From: a virus
DNA length: 24,420 nt
Virus record (IMG/VR): IMGVR_UViG_3300050821_014528
Coordinates: 1-24,420 of that record
Reading direction: 5' to 3' (one strand)
Each line of letters begins with the position of its first letter. Within the stretch, counting starts at the first letter, position 1. Positions 1,959 to 22,339 of the stretch are shown here, in pieces. The notes under the pieces were generated by a model. That model saw only the letters and a program-made list of their open reading frames with translations. It searched no databases and had not been told where the DNA came from. The position numbers were made by a program, and so were the translations under genes.

Positions 1959-2135
1959 ATGACGGCCTCCTTCAAAACCTTGCTGCTGCAAAATGCGCGC
2001 ACGGAATTAGCCGGCCTGCAAGCGCTCTTGGACGAGTGCCAGACCGCTCCCGTGCGAGACTTCCATGAGCACGACCCTGCCGCATCTGGAAGCGGAACTG
2101 AGCGCGGAAGAAGGGCAGCGCTTCCTGATCTATGA
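1959..2135 (+). CDS. Small hypothetical ORF between coiled-coil gene and lysozyme
   Basis: About 58 aa from ATG 1959 (GTG 1950 also possible) with AAGGTG upstream. The N-terminal 35 residues look like a real helix (TLLLQNARTELAGLQALLDE); the last ~23 overlap the lysozyme gene and look like shadow sequence. A competing reading is 1907-2068 (53 aa) in another frame. That one has a near-perfect Shine-Dalgarno (AAGGAGGA, 6-nt spacer), a TGATG junction with the previous gene and an ATGA junction with lysozyme, but a less protein-like sequence. The region is coding in one of the two frames, or in both joined by a frameshift. Confidence 0.4.
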   Translation: MTASFKTLLLQNARTELAGLQALLDECQTAPVRDFHEHDPAASGSGTERGRRAALPDL

Positions 2136-2568
2136 CGATGCCACCGGCAAACCCTTCAAGAAAGGCGATACGCTGAAGGGAAACCTGTCGGTCGGTATCG
2201 GGCTTAACCTGATGATCCCGTTCGATCCGGTCGAACTCCGATTCCTAGAGGACTTCCGCATTACCAAGATGCAGATGCGGCTACAGGCCTATGCTTGGTA
2301 TGCGGCCTTGGACGCCGTGCGTCAGGTGGCGGTGGCCGACATCGCCTACAACATTGGCGTGGAGGGGCTTCTCCACTGGCCGCATTTCTTGGCAGCGATG
2401 GCCAAAAAAGACTATCCTTCGGCCGTTGCCGAAATCCGAAGTGATACGCTGTGGGTCTCTCAAGTCAAGCAGACTCGCGCCGGGCGCCTCGAGGCCATGC
2501 TACTCAGCGGCGAGTGGCCGAGTGATATTCCCCTGGCCACCGTCACCCTAGGAGCACTCCCCGTATGA
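2065..2568 (+). CDS. T4-type lysozyme / endolysin (GH24 muramidase)
   Basis: 167 aa, close to T4 lysozyme in length. It should hydrolyse the MurNAc-GlcNAc bond of peptidoglycan at the end of infection. Aligned by eye with T4 E: EEGQRFLIYDD gives catalytic Glu16 and Asp25, and LSVGIGLNL corresponds to YTIGIGHLL, but the third active-site residue (Thr26 in T4) is Ser42 here. The C-terminal half keeps the family pattern DAVRQVAVADIAYNIG ... TRAGRLEAMLLSGEW. There is no N-terminal signal or SAR helix, so export should depend on the holin. The insertion GKPFKKGDTLKGN between Asp25 and Ser42 is longer than in T4. The start overlaps the upstream small ORF and the end shares ATGA with the holin candidate. 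Confidence 0.93.
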   Translation: MSTTLPHLEAELSAEEGQRFLIYDDATGKPFKKGDTLKGNLSVGIGLNLMIPFDPVELRFLEDFRITKMQMRLQAYAWYAALDAVRQVAVADIAYNIGVEGLLHWPHFLAAMAKKDYPSAVAEIRSDTLWVSQVKQTRAGRLEAMLLSGEWPSDIPLATVTLGALPV

Positions 2569-2945
2569 GCACGCCCGATCCTGTCCCTGTCGCTGCTGCT
2601 GCCATTCCGTGGTACCAGTCTCGCGTCCAGATCGCTCAGGTCGTCTCGCTGGTATCGGCGGCTATCGCCATGTTCCCGAAGGTGGGGACTGCGTTGGGGC
2701 TCACCAACTTGGTTGCCATCCAGACCGCCGTCGAGACGATCTTTGGCACAGTCGCCTTGATTGCCCCGCTGGTGGGCTCCATCTGGCGGGCCCGCTCGAC
2801 CCTCCAGCCCTTGACCCTCACCAAAGCCGCCGCCGCAGTGCACCCCGCGACCATTGCGGTAGCCGCCGCTCAAGTCGCCAACGGAGTCCCTCATGCGTCA
2901 CCTGTTACGTCTAGCCACAGTCCTAACGATAAGCCTGCTGCTTGA
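2565..2945 (+). CDS. Holin candidate (two membrane segments)
   Basis: 126 aa, starting at the ATGA overlap with lysozyme. After a short Pro/Ala N-terminus comes the phrase PWYQSRVQIAQVVSLVSAAI, which resembles the WYxSRTIWG start of many phage holins. Two hydrophobic segments follow at ~20-37 and ~47-70, and then a polar Ala-rich tail. Two helices, small size and linkage to the endolysin all fit a class II-like holin that forms inner-membrane lesions and times lysis. The 3' end overlaps the lipoprotein gene by 53 bases in another frame, as spanin genes often do. Confidence 0.75.
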   Translation: MSTPDPVPVAAAAIPWYQSRVQIAQVVSLVSAAIAMFPKVGTALGLTNLVAIQTAVETIFGTVALIAPLVGSIWRARSTLQPLTLTKAAAAVHPATIAVAAAQVANGVPHASPVTSSHSPNDKPAA

Positions 2946-3315
2946 GGCGTGTGCGACCGCGCCCGCAGCCCCGGGAGCGCCGCCCACGACCCTGCAGACC
3001 TTCGATGCGCTCTACGCGAGTGCGGTCTCCGCCGATGACTTGGTCGTCAAGTCCGCGACGGTGGCGCTCTCTTCGGGGTGGATCAGTGCCGCCCAGGCCA
3101 AGAAAGTCCTCTCGATCACCGATGCGGTGAAAGCCGCCTTGGATGCCGCCAATGGTGCCGCCCAGCTCGGCAACCTAGGCGTCGCCAATGGCAACCTCGC
3201 GCAGGCGATGGGCCCGATCGTGATCTTGTCCGCGTGCCTGACCATCAAACCCCTGACGGTGAGTACCTTCGACGCCTGTGCGGCGAAGCTCGCGCCCCCG
3301 GCGGTGCAATCATGA
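2893..3315 (+). CDS. Lipoprotein, outer-membrane spanin (Rz1-like) candidate
   Basis: 140 aa. ATG 2893 is preceded by GGAG with a 6-nt spacer and lies inside the 3' end of the holin gene. The N-terminus is a lipoprotein signal: MRHLLRLATVLTISLLLEAC, with Cys20 as lipidation site. Glu at -2 is unusual for a lipobox. The mature protein starts with an Ala/Pro-rich linker (ATAPAAPGAPPTT) and is then helical. Position and lipoprotein signal suggest the outer-membrane partner of a spanin pair, with the 1246-1641 protein a possible inner-membrane partner. It is longer than typical Rz1, so it could be another lysis-cassette lipoprotein. Confidence 0.75.
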   Translation: MRHLLRLATVLTISLLLEACATAPAAPGAPPTTLQTFDALYASAVSADDLVVKSATVALSSGWISAAQAKKVLSITDAVKAALDAANGAAQLGNLGVANGNLAQAMGPIVILSACLTIKPLTVSTFDACAAKLAPPAVQS

Positions 3316-4968: not shown

Positions 4969-5738
4969 TGGCGCGTCGTAAGGCACAACTCAAGGGCATT
5001 AAAAAACGCAAGAGCGGCTATCCCGTCACGGAGCGCGACAAACTCTTTTGCGAGCGCTGGCTCATTCACTTCGATGCCGCCCGCGCGCACCGGGAAGCGG
5101 GCTTCAGCGCAAGTACCAATGGCACCGAAGGGCTCAACAAGTTAGAGAAATTCGCCGAGTACCTGCGTCCGATCCAGCAGGCCAAGGCGAAGTTGGTCGC
5201 TGAACGCCTGATGATCGACTCCGACAGTGTGCTCGACAAGATGAAGGCGCAAGTCTTCTACGACCCGTCGGAGTTCTACGAACGGACGAGTGAGCCGTTG
5301 ACGACGTTCGTCAAGGTGCCGCGGCGCAAGCAGATGGTCGAGCAGACGATGACCTGGGACGGGCAGCCGGTGTATGGCGAGCGCCTGAAGCCCTACTCCG
5401 ATCTGACCCCCGCACAGCAAGCCGTGGTCGAGATCACGAGTACGGACGGGGATCGGATTCATTACCGGCTGCCGACCATTGCCGAGCGCCACCAATACCT
5501 GACGAGCCTGGGCCGGCAGTTCGGCCAGTTTGCCGAGCGCCTCATCATCGAGCGCCACAAGCACCAGCACGTGCATGCGCATTTGACCTTCGAGGGGGTG
5601 CCGACGCAGAAGCTGAATGCGATCACGCGCCAGCTCCTGCCCTTGGTCGGTTTGGAATTCGCGCAGTCGTTGGGCTATACGGCCGAGGACATCGATGCGG
5701 CAGCGCGAGACGAGGGCGTTCTCGTACCCGCCCATTGA
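4968..5738 (+). CDS. Terminase small subunit
   Basis: 256 aa from ATG 4968 (TGATG); an in-frame start at 4626 would add a shadow extension over two other genes and is rejected. After a basic N-terminus (MARRKAQLKGIKKRKSGYPV), residues 20-50 form the DNA-binding helix-turn-helix of small terminases (TERDKLFCERWLIHFDAARAHREAGF), as in Terminase_2-type proteins that recognise the packaging site. The middle contains YDPSEFYE, often seen in these proteins, and the C-terminus is helical with a His-rich segment (RHKHQHVHAHLTF) that may contact the motor. The large subunit lies 0.65 kb downstream, separated by two small genes. Confidence 0.87.
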   Translation: MARRKAQLKGIKKRKSGYPVTERDKLFCERWLIHFDAARAHREAGFSASTNGTEGLNKLEKFAEYLRPIQQAKAKLVAERLMIDSDSVLDKMKAQVFYDPSEFYERTSEPLTTFVKVPRRKQMVEQTMTWDGQPVYGERLKPYSDLTPAQQAVVEITSTDGDRIHYRLPTIAERHQYLTSLGRQFGQFAERLIIERHKHQHVHAHLTFEGVPTQKLNAITRQLLPLVGLEFAQSLGYTAEDIDAAARDEGVLVPAH

Positions 5739-5796: not shown

Positions 5797-6078
5797 ATGC
5801 CGCCATCCGAGACCACCTATCACAGTGAAATAAACCAGCCGGCGCATCGGCCCGGCATGGAAAGCGTCGTCAACCGGGGAGGCGATGCGCGCGATCAAAG
5901 CGGTAACCGCGAAGGGCCGCGGCGCACCGTGGGAGCCGGGACGCAGAGCGCGTTCGGGCCGGCGAGTGCGTCGGACCCGGCACCGAAGGCCGCGCCGGCG
6001 GCGCCTGAGTCCAGCAGCGGCCCTGCCGAACCCGACGACATGGTCATGAAGATCGTCGACAAGATGCAGACTGGCTGA
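5797..6078 (+). CDS. Low-complexity disordered protein
   Basis: 93 aa from ATG 5797, preceded by AAGGAT with a 7-nt spacer. It is predicted disordered: rich in Pro, Ala, Ser and Gly (PKAAPAAPESSSGPAEPDD), with a short C-terminal helix (MVMKIVDKMQTG). It lies between the terminase genes. Acidic/Pro-rich disorder plus a terminal helix resembles small scaffold or packaging accessories, but no specific role can be assigned. Confidence 0.6.
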   Translation: MPPSETTYHSEINQPAHRPGMESVVNRGGDARDQSGNREGPRRTVGAGTQSAFGPASASDPAPKAAPAAPESSSGPAEPDDMVMKIVDKMQTG

Positions 6079-6084
6079 CGGCGC

Positions 6085-6348
6085 GTGTTAGACACCCCGC
6101 TCGATGCCGAGGCGCAAATCAAACTCGCCCTCATGCGGGCCATCGATGCGGACCTGCGGCGCCGCTATCGGACCTTGGCGGAAGCGGCCGAGGCGATCGG
6201 TACCGATGCGCCGATGAGCCTCGCCTGGCCGTGTCTTTCGCGCCTGCGCCATGGCCATCACAGGTACTTTTCCATCCCATGGCTCTTGCGCCTGGCGAGC
6301 GCCGCGCACGTGCACATCCGCTTCAAGATCGACCCTGTGAATCGCTAG
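6085..6348 (+). CDS. Small XRE/HTH_37-like DNA-binding protein
   Basis: 87 aa from GTG 6085, with no strong Shine-Dalgarno. The core reads as a helix-turn-helix of the HigA2-like (HTH_37) kind: RTLAEAAEAIG for the first helices, PCLSRLRHGH for the recognition helix, and FSIPWLLRLASAAHVHIRF for the closing helix and strand. Such proteins are antitoxins or repressors; no toxin-like partner adjoins it here. Its place between the two terminase genes allows a role as packaging DNA-binding factor or late regulator. The HTH class is reasonably clear; the role is inference. Confidence 0.72.
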   Translation: MLDTPLDAEAQIKLALMRAIDADLRRRYRTLAEAAEAIGTDAPMSLAWPCLSRLRHGHHRYFSIPWLLRLASAAHVHIRFKIDPVNR

Positions 6349-6384
6349 AATTATTCCCCCTAGACCAGGCGGTTGAGGCCTGAG

Positions 6385-9039
6385 ATGTATGAATTGCTCT
6401 CCGGGGATTCGCTCCCGCCGCGTGCGGAACTGACCCCGCTCCACGCCCGCACCTACCTGACCGAGATCGCGGCCGAGGAGATGCGTCGCAACCTGCGCAT
6501 CTATTGCCGGCGCAGTTGGCCGCAGTTGCAGCCGCAAGCGCTGCAATGGAATTGGCACCTGGATGCCATTTGCCTCCCGGGCGAAACGCTCATCACGACA
6601 GAAACGGGTCCGCTTCCCATCGGCTACATGGTCGAGTCCGGGTGGACCGGCAATGTCCTTAGTTATTGTCATGATCGTGGCCGAACGCAGTGGAAACCGA
6701 TCAAAACCCACATGCGGAGCGCGCCACAGCCGCTACTCAAAATCCACTTCGCTGATCGTGCGCCGCTGGAAATCACCGGCAATCATCCCGTCTTCGTTGA
6801 GGGCAAAGGCTATGTCCGCGCGGATTTACTCAAGAGTGGTCAGACCGTGCTTGCTGTGCGAAGAATGCGGCGTGACTTTCGTTCAAATCGGCTCGCACAC
6901 GAGGAGATTCTGCAGTCTGAAGTGCTTCGGACTGCACAAGATCAAGCCAGAAACCGTCACGTGTCCGACATGCGGAGGACGAAAGGCTTGGGGCGGTTCG
7001 ACGTGTCGAAGTTGCTGTTCCAAGCGAAGCCTGCGCGGCAAAGAAGTGCCGTGTGCCGAATGCAGCAAAGGCGTTTATATGACGCCCGGCAAGTGGGCCT
7101 GCTCGCCGCGGACCTACGGGGTCTTTTGCGGTCCTCTCTGCCAGAGCAAGTTCTTGAGCGGTCCGAAGAATCGGGCCTATATCGACGGGTCGAGCACCCT
7201 TCTTTATTCGGTCGAATTTCGACGGATGCGAGCGCAGGTAAAAGCGCGCGAGCAGGGACGCTGTTTCCTCTGCCTCATGATGCGGCGACGCATGGACGTG
7301 CACCACATCGATCGAGACCGCAGCAACAATGCCATCGCGAATCTAGTGTTTCTGTGCCGGCCCTGTCATCGGCGCCAGCACTGGCACAGCATCAAGAAGA
7401 TGGCGCGATTGGCCGCTGCGTTATCACTTCGATTGAGCACTCGCTACGGGTATGCGATGCCCTCTACAACCTCGAAGTTGCAGACAATCACAATTACTTT
7501 GCCGCTGGAATTCTAGTCCACAACTGCGATCACCTGGCCTACGTCACCATGGGAGAGATCCGCTTCCTGATGATCTCCATCGGTCCGCGCACCACAAAGA
7601 CGATGGTGTGCTCGGTGCAGTGGCCGACCTGGCATTGGCTGCACGTGCCAGGCGAACAGTTCCTGACCGCGAGCGTCGATGACCAGCTCGCCCGCGACTC
7701 CTCCATTCTCTCCCGCCGCTTGATCGAATCGCCCTGGTACCAGACGCAGTATCCGGGCCAGATCGAGCTCTTCGACGATGAGAACACCGCCGGCATGTAT
7801 AGGAACCGCAAGGGCGGCTACCGGATGATTGCGAGCGTACAAGGCCGTGTGACCGGCGTCGGCGGGACGATTCAACTCGCGGACGACCTGGTCGACGCCA
7901 AGAAAGTGCAAAGCGACGCCGTGCGGCACTCCACCTTGGCGTGGCACGACAATGCCTGGCGCTCGCGCGTCAATAACCCCGATCACGTCAAGAAGGTGTA
8001 CGTCGGGCAGCGCACGCACGAGGCCGACCCCTACGGCCACGTCTTGAGCCAGGAAGGTGATCGGTGGGTCCATTTGGTATTGCCTACGGAGTTCAACCCG
8101 CTCAAGCGCTGCGTGACTTACCTCAACAAGGGCGAAGGCGTCGCTCCAGGCGCCAAGCCGATATTCCAAGACCCGCGGCAGACGGAGCGGGAGATTCTGG
8201 ACCCCAAGCGCATGTCGGCGAAGACCGTCAACGCCGAGAAGCGGATTGTCTCCGAAGCCGCTTGGCAGGCGCAGTACAACCAGGACCCGATTGGCATGGG
8301 GGGCCTGATCCTTAAGCGTCACTGGTGGCGGCCGTGGGTGCAGCCCGAATGGCGCGCGAACGCCCGTGCCGAGCGGCCCATGCCGCGCTTCGACAAGATC
8401 TTGCAGATTTGGGACACCGCGCTCGGAGAAGAGGAACAGGACGATTTCTCAGCCTGCACCACCTGGGGCACGTTCACCTACACGGAACAGTACGTCGACA
8501 AGAAACTGCATCGCCCACCCGACTGGCCGAAGGACAAAGAGCGGCCGGTGCAAGGCGAGACGCGCGTCTGCGCCATGCTCTTGGATGCCGTCAAGGAACG
8601 CTATGCCTATCCCGACCTACGGCAGAAGGCGATCGACCTCTACAAGGACTTTGATCCGCACGAGATCTTGATCGAAAAGAAAGTGAGCGGCTTCGGCTTA
8701 GTGCAGGAACTGCGCAGGAAGCGATTACCAATCAAGGCCGTGAAACTCACCGGATCCTCGGGCCGGGGCGGCGGGGAGGGAGATTTAGTTGCTCGTGCGC
8801 ATGCGGCGTCGCTGATGCTCGAAAAAGGTTGTGTGTGGTACCCGGTCCGTCCCTTTGCCTATGCCGTGATCGACGAGTGTTCGGGGTTTCCCAATGCCGA
8901 TCACGACGACTACGTCTCGACCGTGGTCATCGCCTTGATGTATCTCAGACGCTATCATGACCTGCAACTGCCAGATGACGAGAAAGATGAGATCAGCCCG
9001 TGGGCGTGGAAGCGCCGGCCGCAGAAACGCTATGCGTGA
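6385..9039 (+). CDS. Terminase large subunit, intein-containing precursor
   Basis: 884 codons from ATG 6385, with GAGG upstream; TTG 6373 is an alternative. Residues 1-62 and 381-884 are the terminase exteins and residues 63-380 the intein. After splicing the protein would be 566 aa, a normal size. ATPase: WNWHLDAI/CDHLAYVTMGEI leads into a deviant Walker A, IGPRTTKT (residues 399-406; Lys405), and Walker B at TIQLADD (Asp500-Asp501). Nuclease: QIWDTA (Asp677), ILIEKK (Glu764) and the DHDDYVS cluster (Asp839-842) fit the RuvC-like fold. It cuts and pumps phage DNA into the prohead. The 3' end overlaps a minus-strand ORF by 10 bases. No stop interrupts the frame across the intein. Confidence 0.95.
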   Translation: MYELLSGDSLPPRAELTPLHARTYLTEIAAEEMRRNLRIYCRRSWPQLQPQALQWNWHLDAICLPGETLITTETGPLPIGYMVESGWTGNVLSYCHDRGRTQWKPIKTHMRSAPQPLLKIHFADRAPLEITGNHPVFVEGKGYVRADLLKSGQTVLAVRRMRRDFRSNRLAHEEILQSEVLRTAQDQARNRHVSDMRRTKGLGRFDVSKLLFQAKPARQRSAVCRMQQRRLYDARQVGLLAADLRGLLRSSLPEQVLERSEESGLYRRVEHPSLFGRISTDASAGKSARAGTLFPLPHDAATHGRAPHRSRPQQQCHRESSVSVPALSSAPALAQHQEDGAIGRCVITSIEHSLRVCDALYNLEVADNHNYFAAGILVHNCDHLAYVTMGEIRFLMISIGPRTTKTMVCSVQWPTWHWLHVPGEQFLTASVDDQLARDSSILSRRLIESPWYQTQYPGQIELFDDENTAGMYRNRKGGYRMIASVQGRVTGVGGTIQLADDLVDAKKVQSDAVRHSTLAWHDNAWRSRVNNPDHVKKVYVGQRTHEADPYGHVLSQEGDRWVHLVLPTEFNPLKRCVTYLNKGEGVAPGAKPIFQDPRQTEREILDPKRMSAKTVNAEKRIVSEAAWQAQYNQDPIGMGGLILKRHWWRPWVQPEWRANARAERPMPRFDKILQIWDTALGEEEQDDFSACTTWGTFTYTEQYVDKKLHRPPDWPKDKERPVQGETRVCAMLLDAVKERYAYPDLRQKAIDLYKDFDPHEILIEKKVSGFGLVQELRRKRLPIKAVKLTGSSGRGGGEGDLVARAHAASLMLEKGCVWYPVRPFAYAVIDECSGFPNADHDDYVSTVVIALMYLRRYHDLQLPDDEKDEISPWAWKRRPQKRYA
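6571..7524 (+). other. Intein inserted before the terminase Walker A loop
   Basis: 318 codons in frame with terminase. Block A starts at Cys (CLPGETLITTETGPLPIGYM). Block B holds ITGNHPVF with its histidine at intein position 72. Blocks F and G are LYNLEVADNHNYFAAGILVHN, giving the penultimate His and final Asn, and the +1 extein residue is Cys (7525-7527). All residues expected for class 1 cis-splicing are present. Between block B (ends about 6850) and the C-terminal splicing part (resumes about 7420) this frame encodes ~190 Arg-rich residues with no family resemblance, because the endonuclease there is written in the +1 frame. Splicing probably still works, with that segment as a passenger loop. 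Confidence 0.92.
6812..7516 (+). CDS. Zinc-finger HNH homing endonuclease nested out of frame in the intein
   Basis: 234 aa in the +1 frame relative to terminase and intein. ATG 6812 is chosen because GAGGG lies 8 nt upstream; the frame is open back to 6563 but that part is shadow. Residues 13-110 carry repeated Cys pairs (CEEC at 16-19, CSLKC, CPTC at 51-54, CRSCC, CAEC at 81-84, CGPLC) suggesting several zinc sites. Residues ~133-190 are the HNH domain: GRCFLC, then VHHID (His164-His165), Asn173/Asn177, and FLCRPCHRRQH (Cys182, Cys185, His186, His190). Catalytic and zinc residues look intact. It would cut an intein-less terminase gene to promote homing. The TAG stop (7514-7516) is 8 bases before the intein end. 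Confidence 0.85.
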   Translation: MSARIYSRVVRPCLLCEECGVTFVQIGSHTRRFCSLKCFGLHKIKPETVTCPTCGGRKAWGGSTCRSCCSKRSLRGKEVPCAECSKGVYMTPGKWACSPRTYGVFCGPLCQSKFLSGPKNRAYIDGSSTLLYSVEFRRMRAQVKAREQGRCFLCLMMRRRMDVHHIDRDRSNNAIANLVFLCRPCHRRQHWHSIKKMARLAAALSLRLSTRYGYAMPSTTSKLQTITITLPLEF

Positions 9040-9923: not shown

Positions 9924-9953
9924 GCCGCCTCAACTCCCTGAGGCGGCTTTTTT
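9924..9953 (+). terminator. Intrinsic terminator of the rightward late operon
   Basis: A perfect 9-bp inverted repeat, GCCGCCTCA (9924-9932) and TGAGGCGGC (9939-9947), encloses a 6-base loop and is followed by six T (9948-9953). This is a strong rho-independent terminator on the + strand. On the minus strand no T-run follows, so it acts in one direction. It separates the converging transcripts; the T-run touches the Thg1-like stop codon. Confidence 0.92.
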
Positions 9954-10770
9954 ATTTCGCTGCGGCATCAGAAGGTGTCGAACCCTCGAAAATAACAGCC
10001 TCTCGATTCGTCACACTGGCGAAAGGCGGCATCTCGATAGGTTCGTATTGGCTGCGCTCCACCAATAGGCCAGGATTGGCGCGCGCCTCATGCTTCTCCG
10101 GTAGCCGCTCCAATTCCTCGGCGCTGAACGGCTTTGTGACTGTGCGACGCTGGACGTAGGTACCGCGTTTGAAGAAGGCTGGGTAGTCGTTCCAGTTGAC
10201 CCCTTTGGCGTGCAGCATGTCGTGCTTGTCGCGACCGTTCTTGCCGTGCAGTTCCTTGTGGCTGTAATACTCGCTCGCGGCCATCGTCAGACTGTTCTTC
10301 GTAGCGTCCCATTCGCGCCACAGAAAGACATTGGCGCCCTCGGTGCGGTTTGGTACCGACCATACCCGAGCGTCGAACGTGGGCAGCCTGTGCGCGTAAT
10401 CCGGCATCGCCACGACAATGTACCGATAGAAATTCAATGTAGCCATGGCGCCGAGCTGTGAGGCCATCTTGAGCACGCGGCCGTCAAACCATATCTGGCT
10501 CTTGGGGTCCGTCGAGTGCCATGCCAAGGTGATCTCATCGCTCTGCGTATAGCCCATGCATGCGTTGGTCTCTTTGACCAGGAACACCGTGGTATCGATC
10601 ATGGCTTCCGCCATCGTCGGGTCATATGGGCGCCGCATGCCCTTCGTGAACGAACTGAAGCAGCGGCCGTCAATGCGGGCAAAGACCGGCAACAAAGGCA
10701 TAAGCCGGCGCCCAGCCTCGGCGTTCTCGTAGACCTTCATTCGGTCGCCAAGTTCGTCAGTTTGGCTCAT
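9952..10770 (-). CDS. Thg1-like 3'-5' nucleotidyltransferase (tRNA-His guanylyltransferase family)
   Basis: 272 aa, about the length of Thg1. Family members add nucleotides 3'-to-5', either G-1 on tRNA-His or repair of truncated tRNA 5' ends (Thg1-like proteins). Visible motifs: FARIDGRCFSSFT (metal-binding Asp34 region), RPYDPTMAEAM, GYTQSDEITL with Asp78-Glu79, WREWDATKNS (Arg152, Asp155, Asn159), YYSHKELHGK, and FKRGTYVQRR. It is the last gene of the minus-strand array, coupled by ATGA to its upstream neighbour. No tRNA gene is visible in the window, so it probably acts on host tRNAs or on a tRNA elsewhere in the phage; repair of tRNAs damaged by host defences is a speculation. Confidence 0.9.
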   Translation of the reverse strand: MSQTDELGDRMKVYENAEAGRRLMPLLPVFARIDGRCFSSFTKGMRRPYDPTMAEAMIDTTVFLVKETNACMGYTQSDEITLAWHSTDPKSQIWFDGRVLKMASQLGAMATLNFYRYIVVAMPDYAHRLPTFDARVWSVPNRTEGANVFLWREWDATKNSLTMAASEYYSHKELHGKNGRDKHDMLHAKGVNWNDYPAFFKRGTYVQRRTVTKPFSAEELERLPEKHEARANPGLLVERSQYEPIEMPPFASVTNREAVIFEGSTPSDAAAK

Positions 10771-20691: not shown

Positions 20692-21028
20692 CGTCCTCCC
20701 CGGGTTCGCGTTCTTTGACCGGCGCCTCGAGCGGCAGCGGCGAGGCGTGGGCGTTACAGTCCTCTTTCGCCTGTTCCCACGTAAAGCGCCGATTGCCAAT
20801 GACCGAGTGCGGCAAGAGTTTGGCGGTGTAGCGCGCCCCCTCGCCCGTGCCTGACTGTTCGACACAGAAGCGGCCGCAGCCCGAGACGATCCGGGTAGCG
20901 GACTCCTTGCGCCAGTGCAGCGCTGCACGCCCATCGGGCTTGTTGCGCTGAATCTTCGCGCGCACTTTCGCCAAGCGAATCTCCGCCAGGTCATCGTCAT
21001 AGGCGCGCCGTCGGGCGCCCTCGCTCAT
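20684..21028 (-). CDS. Hypothetical phage protein
   Basis: 114 aa from ATG 21028, overlapping the DUF5131 stop (ATGA); ATG 21043 is an alternative. The N-terminus is helical and basic (DDLAEIRLAKVRAKIQRNKP), the middle beta-like (RIVSGCGRFCVEQSGTGEGA) with TAKLLPHSVIGNRRFTWEQA, and the tail acidic. It overlaps the downstream gene by 8 bases. Function unknown. Confidence 0.66.
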   Translation of the reverse strand: MSEGARRRAYDDDLAEIRLAKVRAKIQRNKPDGRAALHWRKESATRIVSGCGRFCVEQSGTGEGARYTAKLLPHSVIGNRRFTWEQAKEDCNAHASPLPLEAPVKEREPGEDDE

Positions 21029-21903
21029 CGGTCGATCGGCCATTCGCGCACCTGCAGGTCTTTCGGGAAGGACTCGAAGTCTTTGTAGTCGGCGGTATCG
21101 GCTTGGGAGAGCTGCTTCATGAAGAAGGGAATTTCCTGACGTTCGCATTCCTGTCGCAGCGCACGCGCCCAGTCAAGGTTCATGCTCCGCGCTCCGGCGC
21201 CGCTCTCGCCGCCGGCAATGACCCAGCAAAGTCCCTCGTTGTCTTCCCACTGACCCGTACCGCCGCAGTCGTAGCAGGGTTCAGCATCATCCTCGTAGTC
21301 TGGGTAGGTCGCTCCGATAGCGACGACCTCGCCAGTGCCGGCGCACTTTGGACAGAAGCCTGGCTGGAAGGCGGAAAGGTCGATGGAACCCAATAGCGGT
21401 TCGCAGGAGAGAAACCGAATCGCGGCCGGAACCCCGAGGAGTTTCGGGATATCGCGGTCCGCCTCGTGCTGCTCGCAGACCGAGATCCCGAGCCACACAT
21501 TCGGATAGCCCTCGCCCCAGTCGGGCGGCAGCATCTTGGTGGCATTGCCGATCCTTTTCGTCAAGACGAGCCAGTCGAGCGCCGGGGTCCTTCTGATCAG
21601 GTCCCAGAGCCGCTCGCGCTCGAAGTCCAAGAGCATATGGTTGTCGAACACATCCGACATCGAGTTGCAGAAGACGCGCGGTCGCGTGCCCTCCTTGACG
21701 GCCTTTGCATTCCACTTGAGCGGCTCCGCCCAGTGGTGCGCACCGAAGAAACGCCGGTCGGCGTGGACGCCCCAGAGGTTTGGGAATCCGGTGCGCTTCG
21801 CCCAGGTCTCGGCATAGCAATTGTCGCAGCCGGGCGATACTTTGGAACAGCCCCAGTGTGAATTGAAGGAAAAATCAGTCCACTCTATCGTCGTCTCAGC
21901 CAC
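21025..21903 (-). CDS. Phage Gp37/Gp68-family (DUF5131) protein with extra zinc-finger pair
   Basis: 292 aa from GTG 21903, with a strong GGAGG upstream; the frame extends to 22278 but that is shadow. Start TTIEWTDFSFNSHWGC SKV is the family signature, continuing SPGCDNCYAETWAKR with Cys19, Cys26 and Cys29, a cluster-like set. Further family parts: RVFCNSMSDVFDNH, DWLVLTKR, PNVWLGISVCEQ, IRFLSCEPLLG, WVIAGGESGAGAR. The family looks related to radical-SAM/TIM-barrel proteins, and its reaction is not established to my knowledge. Residues 184-215 add two DnaJ-type CxxCxGxG units (CPKCAGTG, CYDCGGTG). It is coupled to the HNH gene upstream. Confidence 0.88.
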   Translation of the reverse strand: MAETTIEWTDFSFNSHWGCSKVSPGCDNCYAETWAKRTGFPNLWGVHADRRFFGAHHWAEPLKWNAKAVKEGTRPRVFCNSMSDVFDNHMLLDFERERLWDLIRRTPALDWLVLTKRIGNATKMLPPDWGEGYPNVWLGISVCEQHEADRDIPKLLGVPAAIRFLSCEPLLGSIDLSAFQPGFCPKCAGTGEVVAIGATYPDYEDDAEPCYDCGGTGQWEDNEGLCWVIAGGESGAGARSMNLDWARALRQECERQEIPFFMKQLSQADTADYKDFESFPKDLQVREWPIDR

Positions 21904-22339
21904 GGCTCCTCCTTTTGGCCCTATAGGCGCGCCACCACGCTGCTGGCCGGCGCGCTGTGTCACGCTGTCGACGGCAGGCGACGCATTCCCGCGTTCCATT
22001 AGCCCGCAATCTTGTGTTGTCCGGGGTGAACGGATGACCGTGGACACACGCCGTTTGCTGCGCCTTTGGGCTATCCCTTTTCGCGTGGCAAGGTTTGCAG
22101 ACCGCCTCGACGTCCAGGTGGTGCTCAGCGGCGTATCCCTTGTAGTGGTCGTAGTCATGCGGCTTCCCATCGGACTCGTACCGATGGTCGCAATCGACGC
22201 AAGGCAGCGTGTTCGGATGCACCCGATAGCCACTACGAACCTCGACGTTGATGCGCTGACGCGCCTGCAATTTGTCACCGTCCCTCGCAGCCATCGGCGC
22301 CGGCCCCGCCTTCCCAGTGATTGGATTTACCCCAGCCAT
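21896..22339 (-). CDS. HNH endonuclease (recombination-endonuclease VII-like)
   Basis: 147 aa from ATG 22339 (TGATG); the extension to 22468 overlaps the upstream gene. CVDCDHRY (Cys47, Cys50), then HDYDHYKGYAAEHHLDVEAV with the HxxxH-type active site, then CKPCHAKRD (Cys81, Cys84, His85): a beta-beta-alpha-metal nuclease. A second motif near residues 98-125 (CVHGHPFTPDNTRLRANG then RECVACRRQR) is the small DNA-binding tail often seen in phage HNH proteins. Possible roles are DNA cleavage in packaging, recombination, or homing; it does not interrupt a recognisable gene. Confidence 0.85.
   Translation of the reverse strand: MAGVNPITGKAGPAPMAARDGDKLQARQRINVEVRSGYRVHPNTLPCVDCDHRYESDGKPHDYDHYKGYAAEHHLDVEAVCKPCHAKRDSPKAQQTACVHGHPFTPDNTRLRANGTRECVACRRQRDTARRPAAWWRAYRAKRRSRG

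What the first reader, a model, noticed from the sequence alone, without database searches (positions are those of the whole stretch)
6571..7524. Intact HNH homing endonuclease nested in the +1 frame inside a splicing-competent intein
Seen: the terminase frame carries all intein splicing blocks (Cys1, GNHPVF, DNHNYF, final HN, +1 Cys) and is open throughout. The middle ~190 codons in that frame look like nothing. In the +1 frame the same DNA encodes a 234-aa protein with at least six Cys pairs and a complete HNH core, its own ATG (6812) and GAGGG. Known: intein endonucleases are normally in frame between blocks B and F. Inference: the endonuclease has become a separate overlapping gene, while the intein keeps splicing around a passenger loop. 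Both readings look intact, which argues against decay. The recognisable domains change frame sharply near 6850 (+1) and near 7420 (-1), so an ancestral in-frame fusion with two compensating shifts, or frameshifting translation, are alternatives.
Basis: partly seen in the sequence, partly recalled or inferred. Interest (0 to 1): 0.92.

Follow-up and report, generated by a model that had tools for sequence, protein, structure and literature searches.

The report
Terminase intein with overlapping hidden endonuclease
A phage DNA-packaging gene carries a self-removing protein insert (an intein) whose DNA also encodes, one base out of step, a separate DNA-cutting enzyme, and the same two-in-one arrangement recurs in dozens of other phages, where evolution protects the cutting enzyme's sequence and keeps the insert's own frame free of stop codons.

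Summary
The window's TerL gene (6385-9039) is open throughout and carries an intein at 6571-7524. Intein-less relatives give its exact boundaries (WHxDAI|C.HL). The +1 frame (6812-7516) encodes a zinc-ribbon HNH nuclease.

Related loci decide the interpretation. About 50 IMG/VR terminase loci, plus isolates Gordonia phage Clown and Synechococcus phage S-EIVl, have intein blocks in the TerL frame and the HNH nested in +1, never +2. They occupy at least three TerL insertion sites. Five other phages share the window's site; the closest HNH (L110) is 53% identical.

The HNH frame is under purifying selection (dN/dS mostly 0.07-0.35). The passenger read in the TerL frame is unconstrained (about 1), yet lacks the 2-27 stops expected by chance. 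AlphaFold gives a confident Hint fold around a disordered loop. Sequencing error, decay and fusion-plus-compensating-shifts are rejected. Separate internal initiation is best supported; frameshifting is not excluded.

Out-of-frame HNH insertions are known without an intein (ShiLan domain, PMC11855218). A 2025 preprint on actinophage inteins with "non-canonical architecture" could not be read and may pre-empt part of this. Splicing, cleavage and homing are inferred.

The parts
5034..5738 (+). small terminase subunit region (context)
   Evidence: Pfam Terminase_2 E=3.7e-7
6385..9039 (+). terL: N-extein, intein, C-extein in one open frame (ORF could also start at TTG 6373)
6385..6570 (+). TerL N-extein, ends ..WNWHLDAI
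   Evidence: alignment to intein-less TerL homologues
6571..7524 (+). intein (318 aa)
   Evidence: TIGR01445/TIGR01443; empty-site homologues; Hint fold
6571..6864 (+). N-terminal splicing domain (residues 1-98), with Cys1 and TGNH (6775-6786)
   Evidence: pLDDT about 95; conserved columns
6877..7395 (+). passenger loop in the TerL frame (residues 103-275): disordered, unconstrained, but stop-free
   Evidence: pLDDT mostly below 55; dN/dS 1.01 against L110; stop purging
7405..7524 (+). C-terminal splicing domain (residues 279-318), block F and HN
6799..6803 (+). GAGGG, candidate ribosome-binding site of the nested gene
   Evidence: anti-SD duplex -6.1 kcal/mol
6812..7516 (+). nested +1 gene: zinc-ribbon HNH endonuclease, 234 aa; ATG overlaps the intein GYV codons, stop overlaps the ILV codons of block G
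   Evidence: purifying selection
6848..7276 (+). seven CxxC pairs (zinc ribbons) of the HNH protein, up to C151xxC154
7289..7381 (+). HNH core (residues 160-190, VHHID...N...NL..LC..CH...H)
   Evidence: PF01844; invariant columns
7525..9036 (+). TerL C-extein, begins Cys +1 (CDHLAYV)
   Evidence: phrog_38

Best explanation
This is an intein in TerL whose homing endonuclease is encoded by an overlapping gene instead of being a domain of the intein. The ribosome reading terL translates straight through the intein; between the two halves of the Hint splicing domain it makes a disordered loop of about 180 residues with no sequence requirement except absence of stops. The intein then excises itself and joins the exteins next to the ATP-binding site, giving working TerL. 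A second ribosome starts inside the same mRNA, at ATG 6812 behind GAGGG near the end of the N-terminal splicing domain, reads +1, and makes a free zinc-ribbon HNH protein of 234 aa that ends inside block G. By analogy with known homing endonucleases it cuts intein-less terL genes, so that repair copies the intein in. Shown by sequence: both frames open, splicing residues intact, HNH under purifying selection in +1, stops purged from the TerL frame, recurrence in about 50 loci, sporadic presence. Inferred: splicing, internal initiation, cleavage and homing.
For: Splicing blocks and exact empty site. Same +1 architecture in Clown and S-EIVl, about 50 IMG/VR loci, 28 of 30 sampled outer proteins being TerL and 26-27 with intein N and C domains. 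HNH dN/dS about 0.07-0.3 against roughly 1 for the passenger in 96 pairs; window/L110 0.18 against 1.01. Zero stops against 2-27 expected in 33 loci; bimodal against free-standing relatives, which have 3-41. Hint fold pLDDT about 95 with a disordered loop, TM 0.91 to the Mtu RecA splicing domain. Ribosome-binding matches at candidate starts better than background. HNH frame closed just upstream by a stop in L023, L112, L115, L118. Nearest TerL relatives lack the intein while a more distant one has it.
Against: No experiment. The GAGGG-type sites lie in codons of a conserved intein motif and could arise without selection. Four of 32 loci lack ATG/GTG/TTG within 75 nt upstream of the first CxxC. 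No promoter-like site on the + strand of the intein. Homing rests on analogy and sporadic distribution.
Confidence: 0.8

Rival explanations
1. Programmed +1 frameshifting: a fraction of TerL ribosomes slip into the HNH frame after the N-terminal splicing domain, giving an extein/intein-N/HNH fusion rather than a separately initiated protein.
For: In the window the +1 frame is open from 6461, so a shift anywhere before 6848 would work; four loci lack a nearby standard start; the shift is always +1.
Against: In-frame stops just upstream of the HNH in L023, L112, L115 and L118 leave little room for a shift; ribosome-binding matches at candidate starts; no shared slippery sequence was apparent by eye in the junctions listed.
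Confidence: 0.12
2. Sequencing error, or an ancestral in-frame fusion with two compensating shifts in this one genome.
For: In-frame HNH inteins exist (L024 TerL, L141 radical SAM), and GC-rich DNA leaves long spurious frames.
Against: About 50 loci from many metagenomes and two isolate genomes share the +1 arrangement; five other phages share the window's own site; selection and stop purging.
Confidence: 0.02
3. The HNH protein is not (or no longer) a homing enzyme but a packaging partner of TerL, made from inside its own gene; HNH proteins encoded next to terminase genes are known to take part in packaging in some phages (Kala et al. 2014, cited in PMC12613952).
For: Nearly all intein-associated cases found lie in TerL; strong conservation.
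Against: TerL relatives 68-77% identical lack the element; at least three insertion sites; a related HNH sits in methylases; the search query itself favours this HNH family.
Confidence: 0.06

Closest known systems
ShiLan domain and Pacc40 insertion: out-of-frame HNH endonuclease in actinophage DNA methylases (Arsenault et al. 2025, PMC11855218)
   Same: HNH with zinc fingers in another frame of an open host gene, host frame kept open, sporadic presence; the HNH is related in sequence (Clown HNH against the Mantra and ShiLan methylase HNH, E 3e-7 to 6e-5).
   Different: The authors found no splicing domain, so the insert stays in the protein; the host is a methylase, not TerL; ShiLan is +2 (StellaBean, L083 and L089 are +1). 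Here the insert is an intein with a complete Hint fold in an essential gene.
TerL inteins of mycobacteriophages (Kelley et al. 2016, PMC5050341)
   Same: Inteins in the ATPase domain of large terminases, several insertion sites.
   Different: Passages read there describe inteins and endonucleases found as one open reading frame; no out-of-frame HNH is mentioned.
In-frame HNH inteins (phage CL131 dCTP deaminase, PMC6293099; here L024 and L141)
   Same: Hint domain with an HNH endonuclease between blocks B and F; CL131 excision was shown in E. coli.
   Different: Endonuclease is part of the intein polypeptide; here it is a +1 overlapping gene.
Group I introns carrying HNH homing genes
   Same: Mobile element with a separate HNH gene inside a host gene.
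   Different: No Rfam match at 6000-8000, host frame open through the element, protein splicing motifs present.
Fractured genes with split inteins and free-standing endonucleases (from memory, not tested)
   Same: Endonuclease is a free protein encoded between the two halves of the splicing domain.
   Different: There the host gene is split; here one continuous frame runs through the overlapping endonuclease gene.
Gosselin et al. 2025 preprint, actinobacteriophage inteins with 'non-canonical architecture' (bioRxiv 10.1101/2025.01.02.630785)
   Same: Its title, and its citation in PMC11855218 for overlapping reading frames in actinophages, suggest it may report related arrangements.
   Different: Not held in the library, so its content could not be compared.

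Membership tests
Intein (class 1) | Cys/Ser 1, block B TxxH, block F, terminal (H)N and C/S/T at +1 | tested here: met
   Cys1, TGNH, block F, HN, Cys+1; above NCBIfam cut-offs; conserved in 21 homologues
Intein (class 1) | Hint fold | tested here: met
   AlphaFold pLDDT about 95; TM 0.91 to Mtu RecA splicing domain
Intein (class 1) | Absent from homologous genes at a precise site | tested here: met
   Seven intein-less TerL
Intein (class 1) | Excision and extein ligation | not testable with these tools
   needs expression
HNH homing endonuclease | HNH/beta-beta-alpha metal core with zinc ribbons | tested here: met
   PF01844 and phrog_1271; invariant Cys, His and Asn; model 74 pLDDT, only weak Foldseek matches, all among the best being HNH nucleases or zinc proteins
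HNH homing endonuclease | Cuts the empty allele of its own site | not testable with these tools
   sporadic distribution only
Canonical endonuclease-bearing intein | Endonuclease in the same frame as the splicing domain | tested here: not met
   HNH is +1 in the window and about 50 relatives
ShiLan-type out-of-frame HNH insertion | Out-of-frame HNH within an open host frame | tested here: met
ShiLan-type out-of-frame HNH insertion | No self-splicing domain | tested here: not met
   complete splicing domain present
Group I intron | Catalytic intron RNA structure | tested here: not met
   no Rfam match at E<=1 in 6000-8000

The most novel reading that the evidence does not exclude
There is a widespread, old lineage of overprinted inteins in phage terminases: the homing endonuclease was uncoupled from the intein as a +1 overlapping gene, possibly once, and the composite then spread to at least three TerL sites, holding two genes in one stretch of DNA with only one frame selected for sequence and the other only for staying open.
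Probability: 0.55. Interest if true: 0.85.

Novelty: new variant of a known kind. Interest (0 to 1): 0.76.

Why it matters
Inteins are usually described as carrying their endonuclease as a domain of the same protein, so endonuclease and splicing are made one to one and the endonuclease must tolerate fusion. Here the two functions are separate proteins from one stretch of DNA. That would allow separate dosing, free the HNH from the Hint fold, and make frameshifting losses in the endonuclease gene harmful to an essential gene, a possible reason why it resists decay. Surveys that read one frame would call these endonuclease-less inteins with odd linkers: Clown and S-EIVl TerL are annotated with no HNH gene. 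The ShiLan insertions may be splicing-less relatives. Splicing, internal initiation and homing are all testable with existing isolates.

Tried and rejected
Sequencing error or compensating indels: rejected by homologues. Group I intron: no Rfam hit. Genome collections: the TerL query found nothing; the HNH query gave a Bacteroidetes MAG contig (L108) that encodes the same sequence as the L046 phage, and a free HNH in an archaeal MAG. Plasmids gave only weak HNH hits, not followed up. The phages collection gave no HNH hit at 1e-5 but at E<=1 revealed Clown and S-EIVl. Foldseek of the HNH model gave only weak matches (best E 0.015). HNH tree: the 25 nested TerL sequences need 3 changes of state, so one origin is compatible but not shown. 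Promoter scan: nothing on the + strand of the intein. L137 has an open overlapping frame without any recognisable gene and is treated as chance. Vibrio helicase and archaeal-virus terminase inteins among the hits have no HNH frame of this kind. Literature: ten searches found no paper on an intein with an out-of-frame endonuclease; the most relevant preprint is not held.

Full report
What is there. The window is a 24.4-kb viral record. Its large terminase gene runs from 6385 (ATG; the ORF could also start at TTG 6373) to 9039, downstream of a small-terminase gene. Inside it lies an intein from Cys 6571 to Asn 7524, followed by Cys +1. NCBIfam finds the N- and C-terminal splicing regions above cut-off, and the flanks are TerL. 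Terminase relatives without the intein (L002-L005, L007-L009) read W.WHxDA.|(C/A).HL across the site, so the borders are exact. In the +1 frame, ATG 6812 to TAG 7516 encodes 234 aa with seven CxxC pairs and an HNH core. The ATG sits inside the Gly-Tyr-Val codons of the N-splicing domain and the stop inside the Ile-Leu-Val codons of block G (sequence), so the gene spans the space between the two halves of the splicing domain and overlaps the edges of both.

It recurs. A loose protein search of isolate phages drew out Gordonia phage Clown gp5 and Synechococcus phage S-EIVl TerL. Both have intein blocks in the TerL frame, nonsense in the middle, and a zinc-ribbon HNH in +1; neither annotation lists an HNH gene there. 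An alignment of the three HNH proteins fetched 80 IMG/VR loci and a Clown query a few more. Fifty of the 84 loci classified have the HNH inside a long open frame, in every case as +1 and never +2. Of 30 sampled outer proteins (29 nested and one in-frame control, L024), 28 are TerL, 27 match intein_Nterm and 26 intein_Cterm; two, L083 and L089, are DNA methylases in which no intein was recognised, like the known ShiLan insertions. A second scan with the window's own group added L110, L111 and L112 at the same site as the window, and L115, L118, L119 and L120 at a third site. The sites are WH.DA(I/L)|C.HL before Walker A (window, L020/L021, L022, L110-L112), |C.IDDP in Walker B (Clown, S-EIVl and most others), and about two residues further on, |CDDP (L115, L118, L120; L119 reads |CVDDP).

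Both frames matter, in different ways. With the HNH protein held fixed and its synonymous codons redrawn, 2 to 27 stops should appear in the TerL frame; none is seen in any of 33 loci. The distribution is bimodal: nested loci have 0 stops, free-standing relatives 3 to 41, and no locus has zero stops in the +2 frame. The purging shows that translation must pass through. The sequence of the passenger in the TerL frame is otherwise free: in 96 pairs the HNH frame has dN/dS mostly 0.07-0.30 and the TerL frame mostly 0.8-1.7. For window and L110 the values are 0.18 and 1.01. By contrast the N-splicing domain (0.12-0.67) and the extein (0.02-0.03 where measurable) are constrained in the TerL frame. 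In 22 HNH proteins 19 columns are invariant, the cysteines and HNH residues among them; in 21 inteins the invariant columns are Cys1, G13, T69, H72, N308, N318 and Cys+1, all in the splicing blocks. AlphaFold gives a Hint fold at pLDDT about 95 for residues 1-98 and 279-319, with a disordered loop between them, matching the Mtu RecA splicing domain with TM 0.91. This argues against decay, sequencing error and an in-frame fusion.

How it probably works. TerL ribosomes read through; the intein folds around the loop and splices. The HNH protein is made by separate initiation near the end of the N-splicing domain: candidate starts there have better ribosome-binding matches than controls (median -6.1 against -2.8 kcal/mol, p=2e-8; related loci are not independent, and the matching codons belong partly to a conserved intein motif). 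In L023, L112, L115 and L118 an in-frame stop just upstream closes the HNH frame. Four loci (L032, L046, L052, L101) lack a standard start codon within 75 nt, so frameshifting, an upstream start or rare starts remain open for them. The role is inferred to be homing: the window's nearest TerL relatives (68-77% identical) lack the element, while a more distant one (L110, 61%) has it.

Origin. On an HNH tree the nested TerL sequences cluster apart from free-standing ones (3 changes, shuffled mean 19; one origin compatible but not shown). On a splicing-domain tree the pre-Walker-A and CDDP groups form one set of nine (SH-aLRT 99) and the S-EIVl group another of 15 (99), which suggests that the composite moved between sites. 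Being always +1 is not because +1 is the easier overlap: in free-standing relatives that frame usually holds more stops than +2, which again favours common descent.

Known or new. Out-of-frame HNH insertions in phage methylases are published, without splicing domains (PMC11855218); their HNH is related to Clown's. TerL inteins as such are well known (PMC5050341). No paper found in the held library describes an intein with an out-of-frame endonuclease. A 2025 preprint titled with 'non-canonical architecture' could not be read and may cover actinophage cases. I therefore rate this a new variant of a known kind rather than categorically new.

Limits. Everything is sequence inference. Many loci are near-duplicates, so about 30 distinct cases is a fairer count than 50. 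The search query was this HNH family, so the statement 'nearly always in TerL' is biased. The dN/dS figures use a single-frame method on overlapping genes; the contrast between frames, not the absolute values, carries the argument. Classifying loci as nested required an open outer frame, but the gap between 0 and the expected number of stops is too large to be produced by that choice.

Noticed in passing
window 9952-10770 (-): Thg1-like tRNA-His guanylyltransferase (PF04446 E=3.5e-25) in a phage record; uncommon in phages to my knowledge.
   Followed up: no
window 21025-22278 (-): DUF5131 protein (PF07505 E=3.6e-70).
   Followed up: no
L083:34-2262, L089:2524-4437: IMG/VR DNA cytosine methylases with a +1 HNH and no intein recognised: ShiLan-like insertions outside actinophage collections.
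   Followed up: partly
L011, around 2000-3070: Same TerL family with a different intein inside Walker A (..SKP|C..HN|T..) that looks like an in-frame LAGLIDADG-type intein; L022 carries two inteins, at both kinds of site.
   Followed up: no
L141:2651-5176, L024:3110-5659: In-frame HNH inteins in a radical-SAM-like protein and in a TerL: canonical counterparts for comparison.
   Followed up: partly
L032, L046, L052, L101, upstream of the first CxxC of the HNH: No ATG/GTG/TTG within 75 nt although the HNH is conserved: start or expression mode unexplained.
   Followed up: partly
L014 (MT771343) and L015 (KJ410740): Isolate genomes whose TerL annotation misses the nested HNH gene.
   Followed up: yes
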